From positions 1,116,001-1,180,000 of the forward strand of contig NZ_FSRC01000001.1 of assembly GCF_900129785.1 (NCBI RefSeq): a stretch of 64,000 nt of DNA, in the 5' to 3' direction. Under the pieces are notes generated by a model. It was not told the DNA's origin and ran no database searches. It was given only the letters and a program-made list of their open reading frames with translations. How positions within the stretch are numbered: position 1 is the stretch's first letter; each line of letters starts with the position of its first letter. The translations under genes were made by a program, and so were the position numbers. Below, piece by piece: positions 17,534 through 29,304 of the stretch. Origin of the DNA: Algoriphagus halophilus. Lineage in GTDB: Bacteria; Bacteroidota; Bacteroidia; Cytophagales; Cyclobacteriaceae.

Positions 17534-18796
17534 TTAAGCTTTTCCTTTAAGCATCAGATTCCAATACATAAAAGGTAGGCCGTATTTCTTCAAGAGCCAC
17601 ATCGAATACTGCTCTTTAGTGGTGTCTACAAATTTTGAAATTAGAGGGTCACTGTCCCTTACATTGTCATATTTAAATTCTGCAAGTACCATTTTGGAAT
17701 ATCCGGTTACCAAAGGACAAGAAGAATAGCCGTTGTAAGCCGCTGATCCCACATGATTGGTATGGATCAATTTTAACAAATTTTCAACTAAGACTGGGGC
17801 TTGTTTTCGAATTGCCGCCCCTGTTTTGGCTGTTGGTAAAGCTGCAACATCACCTAGGGAAAAGATATTCGGAAACCGAAGATGTTGTAAAGTATTCTTA
17901 TCCACATCTATCCAACCTTTATTCGGACCTTCTTGAATGGAGACGATGGAATCCCTAATAAATTTTGGAGCTCCTTGGGGAGGGGCCAGGTGTAGGAAGT
18001 CAAACGCAAGTTTAATTTCATCTTCTCCTACCAATTCCTCACCAATGGTATTGCCTTCCACTTCCTTGGAAGCATCTCCTTTAGGTTTGATGTACTTGAA
18101 CGTGATTTCCTTTTTGTCAGGATCAATCTTTACAGGCGCATAAAACGGCTTGAAAATGATTTCCCGGTCATGTATTATTTGATTGAGCGTATTGGCAAAA
18201 TCAGGGACTCCAAATATGACTGTTCCCGGAGTCGCAAATATGACATTTGTTTTGTCCCTTACTCCGGACCGACGGAAATATTCTTCAGCTAAATACATGA
18301 TTTTTTGAGGAGCTCCACCACATTTGATAGGGGTGGTAGGCTGGGTAAATACCGCATTTCCGCCTTTAAATTTTTGAAGTTGTTCCCAAGTGTACTCCGG
18401 GTCGGTATAATTACTACAAACAATTCCCTTTTCCATCGCTTCAGGAAGTCCGGGAAGCAATTCGGGCATCATGACCAAACCTGGGGCAACTACTAAATAT
18501 TCATAGGTGATCTTTCCTGAATCTTGAGTGGAAACTGAATTGTGATCGGGGTCTATTTCTGTTGCATAATCTTTAATCCAATCTACCCCTTTCGGTATAT
18601 AATCAGCTTCACTTCGCTCGGTATCTTTGAAATTATAAGTTCCTGCTCCTACCAAGGTCCAAGCGGGTTGGTAGTAATGTTTCTCAGATGGTTCAATGAT
18701 AGCCATCGATAAGGATTTATCTTTTCTCTTAAGTTGAGCAGCCACAGTGATCCCTGCAGTTCCCCCTCCTATAATTAAAATCTGATAATGCTTCAT
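17534..18796 (-). CDS. sqr: Sulfide:quinone oxidoreductase, type II (SQRDL-like)
   Basis: Membrane-associated flavoprotein that oxidises sulfide and passes electrons to quinone, making a persulfide or polysulfide. 420 residues. The FAD dinucleotide fold opens IIGGGTAGITVAAQL. HYYQPAWTLVGAG and TQPTTPIKCGGAPQKIMYLAEEYFR are typical of the type II (mitochondrial-like) group and carry one redox Cys; another lies at IVCSNY. SLGDVAALPTAKTGAAIRKQAP is the second FAD contact and SSCPLVTGYSKMVLAEF follows. The promoter carries a Crp/Fnr-type operator. The persulfide product suits the rhodanese and TauE/SafE genes to the right. Confidence 0.93.
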   Translation of the reverse strand: MKHYQILIIGGGTAGITVAAQLKRKDKSLSMAIIEPSEKHYYQPAWTLVGAGTYNFKDTERSEADYIPKGVDWIKDYATEIDPDHNSVSTQDSGKITYEYLVVAPGLVMMPELLPGLPEAMEKGIVCSNYTDPEYTWEQLQKFKGGNAVFTQPTTPIKCGGAPQKIMYLAEEYFRRSGVRDKTNVIFATPGTVIFGVPDFANTLNQIIHDREIIFKPFYAPVKIDPDKKEITFKYIKPKGDASKEVEGNTIGEELVGEDEIKLAFDFLHLAPPQGAPKFIRDSIVSIQEGPNKGWIDVDKNTLQHLRFPNIFSLGDVAALPTAKTGAAIRKQAPVLVENLLKLIHTNHVGSAAYNGYSSCPLVTGYSKMVLAEFKYDNVRDSDPLISKFVDTTKEQYSMWLLKKYGLPFMYWNLMLKGKA

Positions 18797-18817: not shown

Positions 18818-18861
18818 TAAATTTAACAAAGCAAGGCGTAGTAAAAGGTGATATTTATCAC
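18818..18861 (-). promoter_or_regulatory. sqr promoter with Crp/Fnr-type operator
   Basis: Operator GTGAT-ATTT-ATCAC at 18848-18861, a perfect palindrome in its 5-bp arms. On the minus strand TAAATTTA (18825 to 18818) matches the -7 box TAnnTTTG except for the last base. The operator centre is 29.5 bp upstream of the first base of the -7 box, the same spacing as at the crp and tauE promoters. Confidence 0.7.
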
Positions 18862-19061: not shown

Positions 19062-22000
19062 ATGGAAAAAGACCAGCTGGAATCGCTATTGTCCAATGTT
19101 TTTGGTCATTTAAATGCAGAAAAATCTTCAGAGAAAAAACAATGGGATGAAGGAATACCACTATTGGCAAAATCTTTACTGATTCAGGATAGCCAAGAAA
19201 TTCAAGAGGATTCATTTAGTTTTGAGAATTCAGAACTTTTTTTTCATGAAAGAATTCCCAAGAAAAAGATTGAGCTCATTAGGAAAGAGGCTGATAAAGC
19301 AACAGTAAAGGAAGACGATCCTCGTTTGAAAGCTTTTGTTAGAGAAGTTCCTGTCAAAAGCACACAGATTAGGGCGAGTACGCCCAAATGGGCAGCGGGT
19401 GCAAAGGTGGTCAAATCGATTGGACCCTTGAAAAGGGTGGATGGAAGAGTGGTAGTCATTGATTTTTATAGAGTAACCAAGTTGGTGGGGATTTACCAAC
19501 AAAACAGTAGCCTTCCTGTCCTTTTATTTAAAGCAACTTTTAAAGAGTCGAAAGTAAAAAAGATCAAGGCTGCTCCGATAGAGGTAACAAAAAACTATGA
19601 TGTTGCGGCGGGTAGTTTTTATGTGCGTGCGGATATGCTTGCCAACAATGCACCAAATTCCCGCTATGTAGGATTTTTGGTGAAAGACGGGAGAATTCAA
19701 TTAAGTGCAGACCCTGTTTTACAAGGAGAGAAGCTTATTTTGGCTGCCACTACTTCTGTCCAGGTAAGTCTGGATTTAGATCAGGCACCGAATCCTGCCA
19801 ATTCGAAAAGCAAACATGGAAGAGATGCATTTGAGGCGAAGATCAATACTCCTGATAAACTTAATTTTTCATTTACTGGCGCCTCCAAAATTCAATTAAA
19901 AGAAATAAGTGACGCCCAATGCACAGTGTATGGAGAGAAGGCTTCCTTCAAAAGGTCTAATAAGGTACCAAAGTATAATTCCCAACTTTCAAGATTACTC
20001 ATCCCATTTGATTGTTCGGAGTCAGAATTTGCTCCAAAAAAGCAGAAAAGTCCTATGGTGGAATTTTCTGGAAGTGCACCTATTCAAGATTCTTGGTGGG
20101 CAATTCCTGCAGCGGAGCTGGACATCGCAGCCCCTTTGGAGGTGGCTGGATCCGGAGGGATTCTTCAACTTCTCCAATCAGGTATCAAACTAAAATGGCA
20201 AGGACTGCAGGCCAGGAAGCTCTTATTAGAGAATCCGTTTCTTTTGGTAGATGTGGGAAGAATCGGGATCACAGATGTGTTTTCCAATGGGGAAGGAGCA
20301 TTTCAGGAAATGGATCATTGGAAAGATGATTTAAATGAACATGGAACATCCATCTCTTTGAGCCTTAAGAAGGGAGCCCTGTTTTTATATAATTCCCTGG
20401 CTGAAGGAACTGAAATGATAGCTGGATTGGTCAATTCTGAAATCAAGGTGGATAGGCCATTGCAAGTCAATGGATTGCCTGTTTCTGTGAAAACAAAAAA
20501 TTCAGCTTTGATATTGGCAGGAAGCGATGCCAAGAAATTGATATACCTATTTGATGATAATATACTTTGGGACAATAAGTTACCCTTTAGTAAAGTTCCT
20601 GATTTTAAAAGTATCGCCATCGCACTGGAAAATGCACTATTTACCATATCTCCTGCAAATGGAGCTTTGGTATTCGGAGAGTGTTCAGAGAACTGGAAAA
20701 AAATCCTTAAAAGTCAGACGTTCTTGGTGTTTGGTATGCTGAGTTACATGCCTACTTTACCTGATCCTTATGTCGCCAACCTAGGATTATTTGCAAGACA
20801 ATTCGGTGATAAAAGGAAAGGAATTGATGGGATCAAGAGTTGGCTGGTTTGCCAAATCAGCCAAGAACCTCAAGATGAAAAATCGGATGCTGTAGCAGTC
20901 AAATTCCATTTTGGTCCTGCCAATACCTCTACTTCCGGTCAAGGGGATATTGCCATGGCCGCAAGCACGGTTTCCATGAATCAAGTGAAATCAGAGGCTG
21001 TAGCAGGTACCTTAAAAGCCGTGAATACTGCTGCTGCAAGTGATAATGGATTGCCTCCCTATGAAGATCAATTGGATCCCTTCATGAGGCCATATGATAC
21101 GGAGTATTTTGCCTTACTGGACGTGAGTTCAAATGCCAATCAGTTGGGGGTAAGTATGGGATTCCCCAGAAGGGATCGGGTAACTACGGGAATAGCTCAT
21201 TCAGTTTCAGAATCTGAAGCAACGATTTCCCAATCCGGTCAATTGATTTCTGTGGAGGGAATGGAAGTCATTGCTCCTGGAGCAATGACCCGCTTATTCA
21301 TGATGCCTCAAGTAGCATGGGAACCAATTTTCAATTTAACTCCTCCTGGAAAAGCCAAGCCGGGAGATCCTCCGGTTTTATTCAACTACTATCCCAACGA
21401 TGGGGGTCCAACTAGGATTTTGAATAATCATCCGGAACGGATAGCCATTTCACCAAAACCTTTGGTTGAATTTATCCTGGATAAATATCAGAAAAAGGAA
21501 ACTTCAGTGGATGCACAATTTACCCTTTCATTTGGAATGAAAGCTTTGGCAGAGTTGAGTCATACCAATGCCAAAGAGACCATCAAGCCTGAATTGGATC
21601 ATGTGAGGCCTAATTTCCCAAATCAATTGGAAGGAGGGATTCAAATCCGAGCAACAGCTGGAAATTATGGTAAAAAGGATCCTGCTGAACCTAAAATGAA
21701 TGACTCCTCCATGTTTGCAGGATTTACTGTTCAGTTAAATAATGTACTGGGGATGAATGGTGTAGCTACTGGAGCTTCTACTTTAGGTCAAAGTGTTACG
21801 GAGATTTTTAATGGTGAATTCTTCGTCAACCAAGGCAATCCCACCCAATTACTTTCTAGAGGTGTTCCGGTAAGCAAAATTGATTTTTCAGGATATGGAG
21901 CCAGTATGTTTAGTAATTGGTTGAGCCCATCTGCTGCCATCGCCCAAACAAGCCAAGCAAGATTTGATGTGATGCTTGGGAGGACAGGACACGAAGTAAT

Positions 22001-24368
22001 TCAAGTGAAAAGCATCGTGTATCCTTGGGGGATTCGTGTGGTAAGAACAATCACTATTTTTCGGACAAGTTCAGGCTTTGTGTTTAGAACGGATAGTGGT
22101 TGGCAACCTGAATCAGATGGGATTTTTGATTTTAGAGCGAAATACATTGACGAATCATTCCCCGGAAAATTGGAGGAAAAAGAGCGATATGAATTACACC
22201 CCGGTACACTTAGGGGGCTTTTTAATATTTCCAATATTCAAGAAGATGGGTCGGTAGCCGACTTTGTGACTTCCAATCAGATCCAAGTTGGGAAAAAATA
22301 CATCAATGAAAGTGGAGATGTCATCGTCAATAGTGAGACTTCAGATGGCTTAAGCTACCTGGATCAACAAGTCAAATGTGTTGCAGTTTACTTCGATGCA
22401 GATGTGGAGATTGAGAATTTAGTGCAAGGGCATAAGAATGGAAGAACTCCTGCTAAAAAGATCTTAGGATATGTTCAGTTGTCTCCCCCTGGAATTCCCT
22501 TGACCCCAAAGCAACTCAATGCCTTGTTGGGGTTACAAGGAGGTTTGATCGGAGGGGATGTGGATTGTGTGATGGATGTAGGTGGCACAGGTCAGTTGAT
22601 GCAAATCAACCGATTTGATATTTCACCTTCAGAAAAACCAGGAAATGAATTTGGGAATCCAATTTTTGTCGCCTCTACAAGGGGATCAGTCATTCTTCCC
22701 AAAGATGGAAGTTGGAGTATGGTGCAGCATGAAACAGGTACAGGAGAAGTGACTCCTTTACCTCCCCATGTTCCTATTCCATTAATTCGAATCGGAAAAT
22801 GGGTAGCAGAAAAAGTCGTCAGCAATTCAGATGTCAATAATAATCTGGTTCGGTTGGCGCATCCTATGGAGATTTTAAGAGATCCGGTAGAAGGCACTTT
22901 TAATTATGGATTCTTACAAAGTACCTCCACTCAAAAAGCACTCTTTTTGACTCCTAGCTATAAGAAAGGAGTTTCCAAGCTATTGAGTAAAACTCCTCCG
23001 ATCTTTTCAGACGCATACAAATTGATGAATGGAAGCAGTATTTTTCCCAATGTGGGAGATGCCTACTCCAATTATGGAAAGGCCATGGCTTTATTGGAAG
23101 GAGTTGATGACCAGGGGAATAAGGTCAAGGCATTTATTGAAAATGCGGCCACCGATGGAGGAAGGAAAGTGCTGGAGTTGATGGAGATTACGGCTAAAGA
23201 GGAAGCAGGGAAAATTGTTGATAAAGGATTTAAACTCTTATCAGGTGAAGCGAATCAGGCGCTGAATAAAGCTTTGGCATTTGATGTCCCTAATTTTGAC
23301 CCATTGTATTTGGTGAATATGGATTCATTGAAAATCTATATTGAATACAAAGCGACTCAGGGAGACCCGGGAAATAAGCAGTATGTGGATTCCAAGTTGA
23401 ATTTCGATGTCGATTCATTTGCAAATGACTTAGCGGACACCTGGAAGAGTAAGGTAAATAATGTTGGAATGGTGGTTGACCTCGGGTCATTTGAACGATT
23501 GATTACCATCAAGGGGAATTTTGATGCTGGGAAGGGAAAAGAAACTGGGTATGCTGGAGACAAGGATAATCCCGGTCCTTTGGATGGGATTCCATTACCT
23601 GAAGTGGAATTTAGCCCAGCCTTAGAACCTGTTATTGAATTGCTACAGATGCTGGCAGCCTTGAGCACCGGTGATTATGGTGCAGTCATGCGAAAAGGTC
23701 TACAAATAGCCATGAGTAATGCTGGAGAAATCTGGGAATATAAGTTTGAGGCGTCCAAAGAAATTCCGTTGATACGCTTCCCGCCCGAAGACTCCGTATA
23801 TAATTCACCTCAATGTCCATTAAGATTGGAAGCAGGTTTGGCACTTGGGGTTTATTTCAATGCTGCTTTAAAAGTGACCACAGACCCTAAACAATTACTT
23901 CCTACAGCGGGCGGATTTATCCAGTTCAATGGCGGCTTGGAGGTGATGTGTGTAACTGTAGGAGCAGCAACGATTTATGCTGTGGGTTCGGTAGAGGTCA
24001 AAATCGCTTGCGATACCAAAATAGGCCCGAGCCTCATGATGAAATTTGGTTTTGGAGCCAATATTTCTGTAGGACTTCCGGTGGTTGGTAATGTCAGTGT
24101 TACCTATATGGTAGGTTGCGAAATGTATGCCGATGCAAATGTCATTGAAGTAACTGCCTTCATGCTTTTCAAAGGACATGCGAACCTATTGGGTGGAGTG
24201 GTAAGTGTCACCATTTACATAGAAGCAAGCGGTACTGTCAAGAGAATTTCTAGCCCAGAGAGAACAGATTGTACTGCTTCTGTGACTTTTGGTTTAGACA
24301 TAAGTATTTGCTTCATCATCAACATCAGCTTCGAAGAGACTTGGCAAGAAAGTCGACAGATAGCCTAA
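19062..24368 (+). CDS. Giant protein of unknown function, first of a two-gene operon
   Basis: 1768 residues, no signal peptide. No family was recognised. The first 95 residues are charged and helical (SLLSNVFGHLNAEKSSEKKQ). Around 105-250 a compact beta segment follows (VDGRVVVIDFYRVTKLVGIYQ, GSFYVRADMLANNAPNSRYVG). Near 343 comes DSWWAIPAAEL, then AGSGGILQLLQSGIKLKWQG. Residues 650-1250 are long beta-rich stretches with few Cys. The last 180 residues (about 1585-1760) are strikingly regular alternating hydrophobic strands rich in Gly, Val and Ala, such as GLALGVYFNAALKV, VSVTYMVGCEMYADAN and ASVTFGLDISICFIINISF. Together these suggest a large beta-solenoid or beta-sandwich assembly. It is followed 22 bp later by another giant gene, so the two proteins probably form one complex. 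Divergent from sqr. Confidence 0.75.
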   Translation: MEKDQLESLLSNVFGHLNAEKSSEKKQWDEGIPLLAKSLLIQDSQEIQEDSFSFENSELFFHERIPKKKIELIRKEADKATVKEDDPRLKAFVREVPVKSTQIRASTPKWAAGAKVVKSIGPLKRVDGRVVVIDFYRVTKLVGIYQQNSSLPVLLFKATFKESKVKKIKAAPIEVTKNYDVAAGSFYVRADMLANNAPNSRYVGFLVKDGRIQLSADPVLQGEKLILAATTSVQVSLDLDQAPNPANSKSKHGRDAFEAKINTPDKLNFSFTGASKIQLKEISDAQCTVYGEKASFKRSNKVPKYNSQLSRLLIPFDCSESEFAPKKQKSPMVEFSGSAPIQDSWWAIPAAELDIAAPLEVAGSGGILQLLQSGIKLKWQGLQARKLLLENPFLLVDVGRIGITDVFSNGEGAFQEMDHWKDDLNEHGTSISLSLKKGALFLYNSLAEGTEMIAGLVNSEIKVDRPLQVNGLPVSVKTKNSALILAGSDAKKLIYLFDDNILWDNKLPFSKVPDFKSIAIALENALFTISPANGALVFGECSENWKKILKSQTFLVFGMLSYMPTLPDPYVANLGLFARQFGDKRKGIDGIKSWLVCQISQEPQDEKSDAVAVKFHFGPANTSTSGQGDIAMAASTVSMNQVKSEAVAGTLKAVNTAAASDNGLPPYEDQLDPFMRPYDTEYFALLDVSSNANQLGVSMGFPRRDRVTTGIAHSVSESEATISQSGQLISVEGMEVIAPGAMTRLFMMPQVAWEPIFNLTPPGKAKPGDPPVLFNYYPNDGGPTRILNNHPERIAISPKPLVEFILDKYQKKETSVDAQFTLSFGMKALAELSHTNAKETIKPELDHVRPNFPNQLEGGIQIRATAGNYGKKDPAEPKMNDSSMFAGFTVQLNNVLGMNGVATGASTLGQSVTEIFNGEFFVNQGNPTQLLSRGVPVSKIDFSGYGASMFSNWLSPSAAIAQTSQARFDVMLGRTGHEVIQVKSIVYPWGIRVVRTITIFRTSSGFVFRTDSGWQPESDGIFDFRAKYIDESFPGKLEEKERYELHPGTLRGLFNISNIQEDGSVADFVTSNQIQVGKKYINESGDVIVNSETSDGLSYLDQQVKCVAVYFDADVEIENLVQGHKNGRTPAKKILGYVQLSPPGIPLTPKQLNALLGLQGGLIGGDVDCVMDVGGTGQLMQINRFDISPSEKPGNEFGNPIFVASTRGSVILPKDGSWSMVQHETGTGEVTPLPPHVPIPLIRIGKWVAEKVVSNSDVNNNLVRLAHPMEILRDPVEGTFNYGFLQSTSTQKALFLTPSYKKGVSKLLSKTPPIFSDAYKLMNGSSIFPNVGDAYSNYGKAMALLEGVDDQGNKVKAFIENAATDGGRKVLELMEITAKEEAGKIVDKGFKLLSGEANQALNKALAFDVPNFDPLYLVNMDSLKIYIEYKATQGDPGNKQYVDSKLNFDVDSFANDLADTWKSKVNNVGMVVDLGSFERLITIKGNFDAGKGKETGYAGDKDNPGPLDGIPLPEVEFSPALEPVIELLQMLAALSTGDYGAVMRKGLQIAMSNAGEIWEYKFEASKEIPLIRFPPEDSVYNSPQCPLRLEAGLALGVYFNAALKVTTDPKQLLPTAGGFIQFNGGLEVMCVTVGAATIYAVGSVEVKIACDTKIGPSLMMKFGFGANISVGLPVVGNVSVTYMVGCEMYADANVIEVTAFMLFKGHANLLGGVVSVTIYIEASGTVKRISSPERTDCTASVTFGLDISICFIINISFEETWQESRQIA

Positions 24369-24390
24369 TTTTTTATTAAAAACTCGAATT

Positions 24391-27300
24391 ATGGAACCTA
24401 AAAGATTGATATCCTTAATGACTTTTCCTCAGCGATTTGATGGGAATACGCTGACTTTAAATATTGTCGTAGTGCCAAGGAATACAAACCCCTTTTCCAC
24501 TTGGTCCACGGGCCTTCCCAATCCAACTAATGTGCCAGGATTTGCGAATTTTCAACCGGAGTTTAGTTTGTCTATTGTCAGAGGTTCGGAAGATTTTCCT
24601 TTGAGTAATGCGACTGCTCCGAGTAGAATTCCAATTGTACAGGCTGTAAATGTGATACCGGCTTCCAATAAGGCAGATATTATTCAAAAAGTGGCCGATG
24701 CCATGCCTTTACCAATCACGGATAACACGGATAAATTGCCTGCCCCGGTACCAGTAGAAAATAGTATTAAAAAATACTTGCCGTTTTCCTATCGTGATCG
24801 TTTCAATTTCACCCAGCCTAGACACCCCAATGCCGTGACGGATGATGGATACCATTGCGCCGTTCGGGATAAAATTCCAACAATCAATTACCAACCCAGG
24901 ACGGAGTTGAGTTGGGGAAAAGTATTTGCCAACATTTTGAGACAACCCCTCTTGGCGAAAGCCTGCGGGATGATTTACGAGGTACAGCTTCAAGTGCAGG
25001 CAGATTGGTTTGAAGATGGGGGTTATATCTATGCGGATATAATAAATGACCCTTATGCAGTGGCCCAGGCCGGATTGCTTGAACATGCTGATGGACCTTT
25101 GATCAAGCGATATGCTGCAAAAATCCCAACACTAACGATGGGAGAAAGCCGCCCTGTATTTGCCCCGGTTTTGTTTCCTGTTTTATATAAGAAGGTATCT
25201 GATGCAAGTGAACCTGTGCCATTGGGTCCTTGGGATGAATTATTTATGGAGGCTCAGACATATAATGATGGATTTGCCAAAATTGTACATGCCAACCAAC
25301 CGGTCAGTGGTAATTTATTGGAGGAAACACAAGATGAATTACCTCCCCAATCCGATTCTGGTATTCGCCTGGGTTGGGATGATGAGCAGATTCTTGTTTG
25401 GTACTTGCGGCAAATGATTGAAAATCCCTCTGATCCGGGTTCCAATGAACGGATTGATGCTCCTTTAGGAGTCATGGGATACCATATAGATGTTAGGCAA
25501 GCTAGCCCGGGTAATGATTGGGAAAGTTTGAATAGCATTGAAATCAATGAAGCTGAAAATATGTTTTCAGGTCAACTTGACTCAAGTTCAACGGAGCTTC
25601 CCTACCAAGTCTACCCCAATAAAATCAGTGGCCCAAACAGCGACCATTATTGGTTGCCCATGTATTATGCCCATTGGATTGGAAAAAATCTGGTAACTGA
25701 GGATCAGGATGCCTTGGAAATCTACAGGAACCATGAGGAAAATGGGGGCATTCAAGGTGTGGTGCAGGATAAGAAAGTAGTGCAGAATAAGACCTTGATT
25801 CCGACTCCATTGACAACTCAGCTTCGATATGGAAATAGCTATGAATTCAGGATTAGGATGACTGATATTTCAGGTGGAGGTCCGAATTTGGACGATGAGC
25901 CCTTAAATGCAGCACCTAGTCCCGAAACCAGCGTTTCTTTCAAGAGGTTTGTAAATCCTGCGATGTTGAGAATTGAGAAACCGATAGAGATCAGAAGTAA
26001 TCTAAGGACTTATTTCAATGCGTTGGATGATGATGAAACGCAATTTGACCCGAATCCAAGTTTTTCAATTCAGCGACCATTGTTGGAATATCCTGCTGTT
26101 GTCTTTACCAATAAATACCAGGGAATAGGTCAGGACCCAGTGGCACTTTTGAAAGCCTTGCCTTTCCAGGAAGATGGATTAAAACCTGCTTTGCCTGATC
26201 CTGATGTAACGCATGTAAAGATCCGAGTGGAGGTAAAATCTCTAAGAATGGATACCCAGTTAAGCCAAAAAGGAGATGATAGTTTCATTACCTTGTATGA
26301 AACAAACAGGTTTTTTCCTGAGGAGTTTGAGGGTACGCTCACTATTCCCATGGAATTCATTGATGTTCCGGTATTGAATTTAGGAGAGCCTGCCAACCCG
26401 TTTTTAAGGGATGATTTATTGATAGACGACCTCAACGGAATGGAAGGCTTGATCCTACCGACGGGAAGACATATCCGGATATCCATGAGAGCAGTGGCAG
26501 TCAGTGATGGAGCTCCTGAAAGTTATTTTGGCTTTATTGATGAAGAGGAGGATAAGGATAGTCGCTATGGTAAAAACCAACAGTTTATGTTGTATAAAGA
26601 GCCTAGCATTGAAGATGATTTATTGCAACCTTTTGAGGCGATTGCTCCAGTTCAGGCGTTGTTTTTAAAACCTGACTCTGTTCCAACGGTTAAAGGTGAT
26701 ATTTATAAATCCTTAATAAGGAGGAATTCAGAAGAGGAGCAATCAGGTGTGGTAGAAAGATTGGCCGATGCCTTGGGGGTGAGGGCCAAAGGCTTAACCT
26801 TGGTGGCTCCTAAAGGAGAACGAATTGCTTTTGGATGTAATTCAAGGATCAGACATACCCTTGCGCCAGACGGAAGTTCTATCACGTTTGCTACTAAAGC
26901 AGACCTATATAATCATTGGATTGCTACCTTAAGTTATAAGATCAACAGAGACTGGGCCTGGGATTCCCTGGAAGATGTGGGGTTTGTGATCGAAAGGGCT
27001 TATAAATTCCGAAAGGATTCCGAGTCTGAGACAAGAGTCAATACTTATTTAGGAGATATTGAAATCAAGCATACGGTTTCCTTCGAAGCCCTACAGGCAG
27101 ATAGCTTTGATCGTGTGAACAGGAATTATACGAGAATCATTTACATTGATGCCCTAGACCCCAAAAATGAGCTCAAACAACCCAATGGTGAACTAAGATT
27201 TCCAGATGAAATATGGGCAGAATATAAAATCAAGCCCAATGTAAAATCAGGTCATCCGGAACCTGCCATCATTGAAACGGATCAGTTGACGCTTCCAACT

Positions 27301-28512
27301 GTTTTACCTCCAGCTCAAGTCCCAAAATTAGTCAGTGTAGGGATTGCCTTTTCACCTTATGAAAGATCGGATGATTATAGTTCTTCTGAGGCGAGGAAAA
27401 GGTATTTATGGGTTGAATTTGATCAACCTGTGGAGAATCCTGATGACACCTATTATTGTCGTGTATTGGGCAATGCTCCGGATCAACTGTTGGCCAGTAA
27501 TGAAGGGGATCAGTTTGTTCCTCCGGAAGAAGCAGCCATTAGTTTGGATCCGGAATTAACCAGACAGATCATTCCGGGACAAAGTGATGATAAAGCAGGA
27601 ATTGCTGCAATGCAACCCATGACTGCTGCTAGTGATAGTGATCGACATTATATTCTTCCTATTCCCTCAGGAATGCATGCTGAAAGTCCTGAAATGTTTG
27701 GGTTTTTTACCTATGAATTCAGGGTGGGACATGGTCATTGGCCAGATAGAGAGGATAACCTTTGGTCTACTGCCCAAGGAAGGTTTGGAAGGCCATTGAG
27801 AGTGACAGGGGTACAACATCCTGCCCCGACCCTGCTTTGCTCTTTGAACCGGAGTAAAAATCATTTGTATGTCAGCGCCCCGTATGCGAAAGCAGTGCAT
27901 AATGGTAAGAATGTAACTTCAAAACCTCCAAGGACCAGTCTCTGGACATTGGTATATGCGCAAGTTTTCCAAGCCGATGGGAGGGATTTTAGAAACATTT
28001 TATTAGGTGAGATCGAGATGAAAATCGGTGTTAGAGTGAATACGGATCCAAAAGAATTGAAAAAAATAAATGACTTGACACAGCAGGTTTATTTCAAACC
28101 GACCATTGGTGATTATACCAAAGGAAGTGTCAGCATCAATCCTAACCTGATTAAAACAGGGAATTTAATTGCTTCAATAAAAGATGAGCATCCCGTGGGA
28201 ACAGCAATCGTGACCTCCCAGGATATTGCTGATAAGCTCAAGCAATTAGGATTGCCAGAAGATAGTCCTTTAAGTGTGTTGGTAGTGGAGGTTTTTGGGA
28301 ATATTACCAATATCCATGACCACTTGAATCAATCCAGAAGTCAAAGGTCAGGAGAGGTGTCAGGAAGGTTCGCGGAGGGTTTGAAAGCTAAAAAAGCAGC
28401 AACTAACTTAGTTTCAACCATTAGACCTTTGAGTAGGGGCTTGGGACATTTTAGGATATTGAGGACTTCACCACTTACTAAAGTTCCGTTTGTTTGTTGT
28501 CCGACCTGTTAA
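24391..28512 (+). CDS. Giant protein of unknown function, second of a two-gene operon
   Basis: 1373 residues, no signal peptide. No family was recognised. The sequence is mostly beta: an N-terminal region with FPQRFDGNTLTLNIVVVPRN, an FnIII-like segment near 478 (TQLRYGNSYEFRIRMTDISG), a middle region ending YRNHEENGGIQG, and a C-terminal part with YEFRVGHGHW and WSTAQGRFGRPLRVTGVQHP near 1126-1145. This last block looks like a conserved core. The very end is VPFVCCPTC, a Cys-Cys-x2-Cys cluster as the last residues. It starts 22 bp after the first giant gene, with a terminator directly after its own stop, so the pair forms a closed unit. The partner is probably the first giant protein. Confidence 0.75.
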   Translation: MEPKRLISLMTFPQRFDGNTLTLNIVVVPRNTNPFSTWSTGLPNPTNVPGFANFQPEFSLSIVRGSEDFPLSNATAPSRIPIVQAVNVIPASNKADIIQKVADAMPLPITDNTDKLPAPVPVENSIKKYLPFSYRDRFNFTQPRHPNAVTDDGYHCAVRDKIPTINYQPRTELSWGKVFANILRQPLLAKACGMIYEVQLQVQADWFEDGGYIYADIINDPYAVAQAGLLEHADGPLIKRYAAKIPTLTMGESRPVFAPVLFPVLYKKVSDASEPVPLGPWDELFMEAQTYNDGFAKIVHANQPVSGNLLEETQDELPPQSDSGIRLGWDDEQILVWYLRQMIENPSDPGSNERIDAPLGVMGYHIDVRQASPGNDWESLNSIEINEAENMFSGQLDSSSTELPYQVYPNKISGPNSDHYWLPMYYAHWIGKNLVTEDQDALEIYRNHEENGGIQGVVQDKKVVQNKTLIPTPLTTQLRYGNSYEFRIRMTDISGGGPNLDDEPLNAAPSPETSVSFKRFVNPAMLRIEKPIEIRSNLRTYFNALDDDETQFDPNPSFSIQRPLLEYPAVVFTNKYQGIGQDPVALLKALPFQEDGLKPALPDPDVTHVKIRVEVKSLRMDTQLSQKGDDSFITLYETNRFFPEEFEGTLTIPMEFIDVPVLNLGEPANPFLRDDLLIDDLNGMEGLILPTGRHIRISMRAVAVSDGAPESYFGFIDEEEDKDSRYGKNQQFMLYKEPSIEDDLLQPFEAIAPVQALFLKPDSVPTVKGDIYKSLIRRNSEEEQSGVVERLADALGVRAKGLTLVAPKGERIAFGCNSRIRHTLAPDGSSITFATKADLYNHWIATLSYKINRDWAWDSLEDVGFVIERAYKFRKDSESETRVNTYLGDIEIKHTVSFEALQADSFDRVNRNYTRIIYIDALDPKNELKQPNGELRFPDEIWAEYKIKPNVKSGHPEPAIIETDQLTLPTVLPPAQVPKLVSVGIAFSPYERSDDYSSSEARKRYLWVEFDQPVENPDDTYYCRVLGNAPDQLLASNEGDQFVPPEEAAISLDPELTRQIIPGQSDDKAGIAAMQPMTAASDSDRHYILPIPSGMHAESPEMFGFFTYEFRVGHGHWPDREDNLWSTAQGRFGRPLRVTGVQHPAPTLLCSLNRSKNHLYVSAPYAKAVHNGKNVTSKPPRTSLWTLVYAQVFQADGRDFRNILLGEIEMKIGVRVNTDPKELKKINDLTQQVYFKPTIGDYTKGSVSINPNLIKTGNLIASIKDEHPVGTAIVTSQDIADKLKQLGLPEDSPLSVLVVEVFGNITNIHDHLNQSRSQRSGEVSGRFAEGLKAKKAATNLVSTIRPLSRGLGHFRILRTSPLTKVPFVCCPTC

Positions 28513-28531
28513 TGGATGACTGGTACATTGG

Positions 28532-28562
28532 AAGCTCCTGGAACGTTTTCAGGAGCTTTTTT
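28532..28562 (+). terminator. Terminator of the giant-gene operon
   Basis: Stem AAGCTCCTG (28532-28540) / CAGGAGCTT (28550-28558), 9-nt loop, followed by TTTT. Confidence 0.88.
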
Positions 28563-28590
28563 ATTGAAATGTTCATTAAATCAATAAAAA

Positions 28591-28634
28591 GTGATTTTTA
28601 TCACCTAATTGGTTTCCACTACTTCTTAAATTTG
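28591..28634 (+). promoter_or_regulatory. crp promoter with autoregulatory-type operator
   Basis: GTGAT-TTTT-ATCAC (28591-28604), then TAAATTTG (28627-28634), an exact -7 consensus. Operator centre to -7 start is 29.5 bp, equivalent to about -42 from the expected start, which is a class II activator position. Confidence 0.7.
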
Positions 28635-28647
28635 ATTTTTATGCATT

Positions 28648-29304
28648 ATGAATCTAGAAGAGCTTAAATCGTACTTACCCAATTTTACAGACCCCAAACT
28701 GCTTCAAGCGATTTTGGATAAAGGTCAAATTATTCATTTGGCAGCAGGTAAGGTTCTCATGGAACCCGGTCAATTCGTAAAAATGGTACCCATAGTTTTA
28801 GAGGGGTCTATCAAAATCCTAAGAATGGATGAAGAAGGGAAAGAGCTGTTTTTGTATTATTTGGATGCCGGTGAAACCTGTGCCCTGTCTTTGACCTGTT
28901 GCGCAGCTTCAAAACCAAGTGAGATAAGGGCAATAGTAGAAGAGGATACCACGTTGGTTGGAATTCCGATTGCAGTACATGAACAATGGACGGATGAATT
29001 CAGGCAATGGAAAGATTTTGTGTCCAATACCTACCAAAGTAGATTTCAGGAAATGCTGGTAGCATTAGATGCTGTGGCCTTCAAACGAATGGATGAACGC
29101 TTGATGCGATATATTGTGACTAAAATGAAACAACATAAAGCCAATGAACTTCATACCACGCATCAAGAAATCGCCAATGAATTGGGAACCTCCCGTGAAG
29201 TAATTTCGAGATTATTAAAGCAATTGGAGAAGAAAAAGTGGATTGAACTGGGTAGAAATGTGATCTATATCCGTGATGATTTTGAAGAGTTGATTAGTAA
29301 ATAA
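28648..29304 (+). CDS. Crp/Fnr-family transcription regulator
   Basis: 218 residues: N-terminal cyclic-nucleotide-binding-like beta roll (about 15-125), dimer helix (RFQEMLVALDAVAFKRMDERL), and a C-terminal winged helix THQEIANELGTSREVISRLLKQLEKK. The recognition helix has E-V-I-S-R, the Fnr-type ExxSR signature that reads TGA/TCA half-sites, consistent with GTGAT-N4-ATCAC next to it. There is no N-terminal Cys cluster for an oxygen-sensing Fe-S cluster; instead ETCALSLTCC holds three Cys in the sensor domain, and these might react with persulfide or oxidants. The stop touches the convergent gene (29305) with no gap. Likely autoregulated and likely also regulator of sqr and tauE. Confidence 0.92.
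   Translation: MNLEELKSYLPNFTDPKLLQAILDKGQIIHLAAGKVLMEPGQFVKMVPIVLEGSIKILRMDEEGKELFLYYLDAGETCALSLTCCAASKPSEIRAIVEEDTTLVGIPIAVHEQWTDEFRQWKDFVSNTYQSRFQEMLVALDAVAFKRMDERLMRYIVTKMKQHKANELHTTHQEIANELGTSREVISRLLKQLEKKKWIELGRNVIYIRDDFEELISK

What the first reader, a model, noticed from the sequence alone, without database searches (positions are those of the whole stretch)
19062..28512. Two-gene operon of 1768- and 1373-residue proteins with no recognised family
Both proteins lack signal peptides and are beta-rich over thousands of residues, they are 22 bp apart, and a terminator closes the pair. The first ends in about ten regular amphipathic strands; the second has an FnIII-like segment, a block like WSTAQGRFGRPLRVTGVQHP and a terminal Cys cluster. 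Paired giant cytosolic beta proteins are typical of assemblies such as sheaths, cages or secretion particles, but no known one is matched here. This is the strongest candidate in the window for an undescribed system.
Basis: partly seen in the sequence, partly recalled or inferred. Interest (0 to 1): 0.78.

Follow-up and report, generated by a model that had tools for sequence, protein, structure and literature searches.

The report
Undescribed paired giant beta-protein operon
Two neighbouring bacterial genes make very large proteins that are found together in distantly related bacteria and match no known family; many distant relatives carry a tag for exporting folded proteins, so the pair probably forms one large complex of still unknown purpose.

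Summary
In detail: two intact genes (A, 1768 aa; B, 1373 aa), 22 bp apart, closed by a terminator. Neither matches Pfam, NCBIfam, PHROGs or PADLOC at E <= 5. It is a two-gene module: in 76 of 78 loci A lies just upstream of B; the other two contigs begin inside B. The same 11 of 58 genomes, own included, carry both, and close relatives show the empty site. It occurs in several phyla and on plasmids, without a constant third gene. B is modelled as FnIII/Ig-like domains; A ends in an 11-strand porin-like sheet whose hydrophobic face is the more conserved. The pair belongs to a wider, unnamed superfamily of tandem giants; 40 of the 46 long remote A proteins listed pass a crude twin-arginine test, 0 of 120 close A proteins do. 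Best reading: A and B form one complex, exported folded in many relatives. In this clade no signal is seen, so location and function stay open. A contractile-system link was tested and is not supported.

The parts
19062..24368 (+). gene A, 1768 aa
   Evidence: ORF; homologues; upstream of B in 76 of 78 loci
24391..28512 (+). gene B, 1373 aa, string of FnIII/Ig-like domains
   Evidence: ORF; homologues; model and fold matches
24369..24390 (.). 22-bp gap between A and B
   Evidence: sequence
23697..24365 (+). A residues 1546-1768: 11-strand amphipathic beta meander, porin-like
   Evidence: model and VIA-align; face analysis
27763..27822 (+). B residues 1125-1144, conserved block WSTAQGRFGRPLRVTGVQHP
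   Evidence: alignment A2
28489..28509 (+). B residues 1367-1373, terminal cysteine cluster FVCCPTC
   Evidence: alignment A2
28530..28563 (+). intrinsic terminator after B
   Evidence: fold, z -3.3; sequence
17534..18796 (-). left flank, oxidoreductase-like gene (the name SQR-like is recalled), not part of the module
   Evidence: ORF; adjacent to the right-flank gene in genomes without the module
28648..29304 (+). right flank, Crp/Fnr-like regulator (name recalled), not part of the module
   Evidence: ORF; empty-site comparison

Best explanation
A and B are partners, probably made from one mRNA, that assemble into a single large complex. B supplies a chain of FnIII/Ig-like domains; A supplies a beta-rich body that ends in an 11-strand sheet with one conserved hydrophobic face, which I infer holds or covers something hydrophobic (a lipid or other ligand, a second protein layer, or a membrane). 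In the wider superfamily many A proteins carry a twin-arginine-type signal and the B partners examined do not, so I infer that the pair folds and assembles inside the cell and B leaves by hitch-hiking on A. In the clade of this window neither protein has a signal, so the complex either stays in the cytosol or leaves by another route. SHOWN: strict pairing and order, co-occurrence, presence and absence as a unit, parallel divergence, domain folds at model level, the two-faced sheet, Tat-type signals on many distant A homologues. INFERRED: one mRNA, physical complex, hitch-hiker export, hydrophobic contact, and any biological role.
Against: No signal on A in this clade; 7 of 16 remote loci also lack one (L112, L113, L115, L117, L126, L127, L128), as do most remote A proteins shorter than 1500 aa (8 of 74 meet the rule). 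The rule is not specific: 14 of 120 close B proteins meet it through an RR at residue 4 that lies in the first beta strand, and a few remote hits do not look like signals. Two of the nine remote B partners have fairly hydrophobic N-termini without RR (L122, L123). The A-to-A distant match covers only 101 columns at probability 69, and a first comparison with a single remote sequence found nothing. The distance correlation has no species-tree control. No interaction was modelled, no coordinates could be examined, and parts of A and B were not modelled. Foldseek gave no global match for either model. Nothing points to a cargo.
Confidence: 0.45

Rival explanations
1. A secreted two-component membrane-active (pore-forming) complex: A's amphipathic meander inserts into a target membrane and B recognises or carries it.
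Against: The hydrophobic face is more conserved than the polar one (0.69 against 1.37 bits), opposite to what I recall for lipid-facing residues. No immunity-like third gene is constant. No toxin family match.
Confidence: 0.15
2. A structural or cargo part of an extracellular contractile injection system (eCIS) encoded elsewhere in the genome; UniRef names in the hit lists ('Baseplate J-like' for P0023, 'LysM domain-containing' for P0126, P0161 and P0171) hint at this.
For: The window's genome has sheath genes in two places, inside what look like eCIS loci by ORF order. Sheath hits in 9 of 11 carriers against 19 of 47 non-carriers among relatives (p 0.015), and 7 of 8 against 79 of 384 in the phylum sample (p 0.00013). 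GerE regulators, named as an eCIS shell domain in PMC8213781 (passages), lie beside 12 of 54 loci outside the Algoriphagus set.
Against: phmmer at E <= 1e-5 found no relative of an eCIS structural ORF in the fetched A/B loci, about 10 kb each side where the contig allows. Within the genus the association is not clear: 9 of 11 against 15 of 25, p 0.19. G016, G022 and G216 carry A/B without a sheath hit. PMC8213781 reports eCIS in 69% of sequenced Algoriphagus and 89% of Chitinophaga (passages), so shared taxonomy can explain the overlap. Tat signals do not fit an injected cargo.
Confidence: 0.1
3. A is an outer-membrane channel and B its extracellular or periplasmic partner.
For: Porin-like fold matches for A 1546-1768.
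Confidence: 0.08
4. An anti-phage or inter-element defence module carried as a cassette.
For: Patchy, two-gene, sometimes on plasmids. On several plasmids the neighbours are defence-type genes: dpdE/dpdF, N-6 methylase, SIR2, HsdR N-terminal, CRISPR type I-D.
Against: No PADLOC match for A or B at E <= 5. Among 82 of 89 immediate neighbours in loci outside Algoriphagus no PADLOC family occurs in more than one (7 long or unselected neighbours left out). The window's neighbours are ordinary. No catalytic family recognised.
Confidence: 0.07
5. An accessory but ordinary role of a soluble giant complex, for example storage or scaffolding, that only looks unusual because nobody has studied it.
For: Function unassigned; no catalytic, toxin or transport family; no constant partner gene.
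Against: Absent from 47 of 58 genomes examined and found across phyla, so not housekeeping in the strict sense.
Confidence: 0.15

Closest known systems
Tat-exported hetero-oligomers ('hitch-hiker' export, for example E. coli PaoABC; start of the abstract of PMC4273604 seen)
   Same: One partner with an RR-type signal, the other without, encoded in tandem (remote relatives)
   Different: The window's pair has no signal; no cofactor-enzyme family was recognised; remote A proteins reach 3311 aa
Outer-membrane porins such as CymA and OmpG
   Same: Long-strand amphipathic meander at the end of A
   Different: No signal peptide seen, short turns on both sides, hydrophobic face the more conserved, closed barrel not shown
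FnIII/Ig-domain arrays (PTPRD FN4-6, Tie2 and others)
   Same: B's chain of FnIII/Ig-like domains
Extracellular contractile injection systems
   Same: Overlapping hosts
   Different: No sheath, tube or baseplate relative found near the pair
DUF1501 proteins
   Same: A Tat-signal DUF1501 gene upstream of A in L089; a near-identical start in L090 (only L089 was scanned)
   Different: A neighbour, not a relative of A or B; noticed in 2 of 78 loci, not searched for

Membership tests
Contractile injection system (eCIS, T6SS, phage tail) | sheath, tube and baseplate genes in the same locus | tested here: not met
   phmmer (E <= 1e-5) with all ORFs of the host's two eCIS-like regions against ORFs of the fetched A/B loci (L013 to L128): the only hits were an ABC-transporter-like and a UspA-like ORF (names recalled), no structural ORF
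Contractile injection system (eCIS, T6SS, phage tail) | present only where a sheath gene is present | tested here: not met
   carriers G016 and G022 and G216 show no sheath hit at E <= 0.001; a profile miss is possible
Tat substrate | N-terminal RR motif followed by a hydrophobic stretch (window A or B) | tested here: not met
   no RR motif, low hydropathy in A and B; 0 of 120 close A proteins meet the rule
Tat substrate | same feature in distant homologues of A | tested here: met
   48 of 120 listed, 40 of 46 of 1500 aa or more; 9 of 16 loci by eye; tatA beside B in L123
Outer-membrane beta-barrel protein | Sec signal peptide | tested here: not met
   by hydropathy only; no dedicated predictor was available
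Outer-membrane beta-barrel protein | closed amphipathic barrel | tested here: inconclusive
FnIII/Ig domain proteins | FnIII/Ig-type domains in B | tested here: inconclusive
Type IX secretion cargo | C-terminal sorting domain | tested here: inconclusive
   no NCBIfam or Pfam match at E <= 5; that the libraries hold such models is recalled
Anti-phage defence systems | match to a known or candidate defence family | tested here: not met
   PADLOC, no match at E <= 5
Phage structural proteins | match to phage protein families or presence in phages | tested here: not met
   PHROGs none for A and B; B: no match in 50,697 phage records, none of 41 candidate stretches in viral contigs confirmed; a remote A: no match in phage records. 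Window A itself was not searched in phages

The most novel reading that the evidence does not exclude
A and B found a new class of giant two-protein particle: pre-assembled in the cytoplasm, exported whole through the twin-arginine pathway in the long-form branches (with a TatA of its own in one), and carrying hydrophobic cargo or a membrane-active sheet together with a scaffold of FnIII-like domains; the branch in this window lacks the signal and keeps or releases the particle in another way.
Probability: 0.25. Interest if true: 0.85.

Novelty: categorically new. Interest (0 to 1): 0.62.

Why it matters
A widespread pair of giant proteins has no family model in four libraries, no name and no known role. 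Its close form occurs in Bacteroidota and, partly from metagenome bins, in Ignavibacteriota, Chloroflexota, Acidobacteriota, Cyanobacteriota and Pseudomonadota; its remote form also in Actinomycetota. If the remote members really are exported folded as a pair, they would be very large cargo for the Tat pathway and a direct test of how big a folded complex it can move. The lipid- or membrane-like sheet at the end of A gives a concrete biochemical starting point.

Tried and rejected
Family placement: Pfam, PHROGs, PADLOC and NCBIfam gave nothing for A or B at E <= 5. Scanning 27 and 28 aligned homologues singly against Pfam gave only weak scattered hits, at most one family in 3 of 28 at best E 0.024. 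Remote members: no Pfam family over its cut-off and no NCBIfam family over its cut-off (each a selection). Sequence and profile searches of the PDB with A, B and their alignments gave nothing better than E 0.099; remote A and B: nothing and E 0.5. Hits of the remote A profile to helical proteins and the 'Apolipoprotein' Pfam hits under cut-off sit in one amphipathic helical stretch and were treated as composition, not homology. A against B: no homology.

A third module gene: clustering the neighbours of 78 loci found, apart from A and B, nothing in more than 6 of the 54 loci outside the Algoriphagus set except LuxR/GerE regulators in 12. Defence link: not supported. Contractile-particle link: not supported. 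Viral fold library, searched with the A model only: weak, unspecific matches. Families not listed by VIA-align are not excluded by it.

Literature: five searches of the PMC library listed nothing whose title or shown abstract start describes the pair; one paper, PMC8213781, was read in passages only. The terms were broad, and most subscription journals are missing, so absence from print is not shown.
Full report
WHAT IS THERE. The window lies at G000:C1:1116001-1180000 of a 4.98-Mb genome; the closest named locus in the genome collection is Algoriphagus lutimaris, 98% identical in B. Gene A (19062-24368, 1768 aa) and gene B (24391-28512, 1373 aa) are intact, on one strand and 22 bp apart. A stem-loop with a T-run follows B (28530-28563; -18 kcal/mol, z -3.3); the consensus scan did not list it. 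Neither protein shows a signal peptide by hydropathy or an RR motif. Neither matches Pfam, PHROGs, PADLOC or NCBIfam at E <= 5.

IT IS A TWO-GENE UNIT. Protein searches returned 1324 relatives of B and 859 of A at E <= 0.001, each from about 8000 scored candidates (120 of each listed). A scan of the genome collection gave 198 stretches encoding a B relative, of which the best 80 were kept as 78 distinct loci. In 76 of these 78, A lies upstream on the same strand within 0.8 kb, sometimes cut by the contig start; the remaining two (L080, L087) are contigs that begin inside B. Among 58 genomes the same 11, the own one included, carry A and B (in the fragmented G031 they lie on different contigs). 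In a sample of 392 genomes of the phylum, 8 carry both; one more (G267) has only a 307-aa piece of A with a stop; three more have weak B hits, and these three turned out to hold a remote A-B pair side by side. One plasmid (Microvirga sp. VF16) has only the last third of B. Distances among A proteins and among B proteins correlate at 0.94 over 74 pairs (0.88 for the 2420 comparisons under about 60% identity); there is no species-tree control.

IT COMES AND GOES AS A UNIT. In G001, whose flanking genes are 88% and 92% identical at protein level, the left-flank oxidoreductase-like gene and the right-flank Crp/Fnr-like gene stand back to back across 584 bp with no module; the coordinates show the same empty arrangement in G003, G004, G005, G010, G015 and G019. 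In G016 the module sits on the other side of the oxidoreductase gene. A tree of 57 B proteins needs at least 4 changes of the label 'Bacteroidota' on well-supported branches; Chloroflexota, Acidobacteriota, Cyanobacteriota, Ignavibacteriota and Pseudomonadota lie among them. The tool warns that more than one change is no proof of transfer, and several rows are metagenome bins; but the Nodosilinea genome is titled as a strain, and complete plasmids of Chlorohelix, Microvirga and Tistrella carry relatives of both genes. No phage record matches B and no viral contig was confirmed for it.

NO CONSTANT THIRD GENE. Clustering the ORFs around 78 loci found, apart from A and B, nothing in more than 6 of the 54 loci outside the Algoriphagus set, with one partial exception: LuxR/GerE regulators in 12, upstream in some and downstream in others (two of them confirmed with Pfam). 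Of 89 immediate neighbours, 82 were scanned and share no PADLOC family.

A WIDER SUPERFAMILY WITH EXPORT SIGNALS. The three weak B hits opened a larger group. Their A-like proteins begin with twin-arginine-type signals (L107, L108, L109), and a search with one of them found 283 relatives at E <= 0.001, among them Achromobacter, Phyllobacterium and Salipiger (120 listed). Profile comparison links B to the remote B proteins (E 3e-9, probability 96). It links the end of A to the end of the remote A proteins more weakly (E 4.3e-5, probability 69, 101 columns); a first attempt with a single remote A sequence failed. A crude rule (RR motif in the first 75 residues followed by a hydrophobic stretch) is met by 48 of the 120 listed remote A proteins: 40 of 46 that have 1500 aa or more and 8 of 74 shorter ones. 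It is met by 0 of 120 close A proteins. It is also met by 14 of 120 close B proteins, through an RR at residue 4 within the first strand, so the rule alone is not proof. By eye, 9 of 16 remote loci have such a signal on A (L107, L108, L109, L114, L116, L122, L123, L124, L125) and 7 do not (L112, L113, L115, L117, L126, L127, L128). Of the nine B partners of signal-bearing A proteins none has an RR motif followed by a hydrophobic stretch; L116 B has an RR with low hydropathy, and L122 B and L123 B have fairly hydrophobic N-termini without RR. In Sinorhizobium meliloti pC a TatA gene (PF02416, E 2.4e-9, over cut-off) starts 49 bp after B. The amphipathic end of A persists in five remote homologues tested, Streptomyces included (z 4.0 to 5.6 against shuffles; other stretches -0.5 to 2.5). 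Lengths reach 3311 aa for A and 2569 aa for B.

HOW IT MOST LIKELY WORKS. Strict pairing and parallel divergence make a physical A-B complex the simplest reading. Signals on A alone in many remote pairs suggest that the complex folds first and leaves through Tat with B as passenger, as the abstract start of PMC4273604 describes for PaoABC (seen). The branch of this window has no signal, although the genome has a TatC gene, so its complex is either cytosolic or leaves otherwise. The conserved hydrophobic face suggests a bound hydrophobic partner. The role is unknown; my confidence in the whole account is 0.45.

RIVALS TESTED. An eCIS part: the host has sheath genes at two places within what look like eCIS loci by ORF order. 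Carriers have sheath hits more often in the broad samples (9 of 11 against 19 of 47, p 0.015; 7 of 8 against 79 of 384, p 0.00013), but not clearly within the genus (9 of 11 against 15 of 25, p 0.19); three carriers have none, and no eCIS structural ORF has a relative in the fetched A/B loci at E <= 1e-5. PMC8213781 (passages) reports eCIS in 69% of sequenced Algoriphagus and 89% of Chitinophaga, so taxonomy can explain the overlap. Defence: some plasmid neighbours fit, but the core clade shows nothing. An outer-membrane channel: no signal peptide seen, and the two-faced end is kept in Streptomyces.

VERDICT. A real, widely spread and, in the libraries and paper searches used here, undescribed two-protein system. 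It is ranked as categorically new because no system known to the libraries searched contains either protein, with the caution that its building blocks (FnIII-like domains, porin-like sheet, Tat signals) are familiar and that its function may turn out to be of a known kind.

Noticed in passing
G000:C2 about 1037000-1061000 and G000:C1 about 2256000-2272000 (L133-L135): The window's genome carries what look by ORF order like two eCIS-type contractile injection loci, one with two tandem sheath genes; only the sheath was identified with a profile.
   Followed up: partly
L123:24694-24861 (Sinorhizobium meliloti pC): A stand-alone TatA gene starts 49 bp after the B-like giant.
   Followed up: partly
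L060, L062-L071 and L078 beside A or B: LuxR/GerE regulators lie next to the module in 12 of 54 loci outside the Algoriphagus set, in different orientations; the one upstream type scanned also has a weak PAS match.
   Followed up: partly
window 18848-18861 and 28591-28604: GTGAT-N4-ATCAC palindromes, Crp/Fnr-like by recall, lie upstream of the two flanking genes; similar sites are visible in the empty site of G001.
   Followed up: no
G016:C54:142580-154435 (L121): Here the module lies on the other side of the oxidoreductase gene than in the window, so its position differs within the genus; three other Cyclobacteriaceae loci (L033, L052, L082) also have that gene after B.
   Followed up: no
L089:2639-4258 and L090:3154-4770: A Tat-signal DUF1501 gene (scanned in L089 only) stands directly upstream of A on the same strand in two related loci.
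   Followed up: no
L103, L115, L122, L124, L125: On several plasmids the close or remote module has defence-type genes within about 14 kb (CRISPR type I-D, SIR2, Dpd, HsdR N-terminal, N-6 methylase).
   Followed up: partly
G267:C185:16612-17541 and Microvirga sp. VF16 plasmid (L106): Pieces of one gene only: 307 aa of A with an internal stop, and the last third of B; probably decayed copies.
   Followed up: no
remote A proteins P0241-P0360: The remote A proteins fall into a long form, mostly with a twin-arginine-type signal, and a shorter form, mostly without (40 of 46 against 8 of 74).
   Followed up: partly
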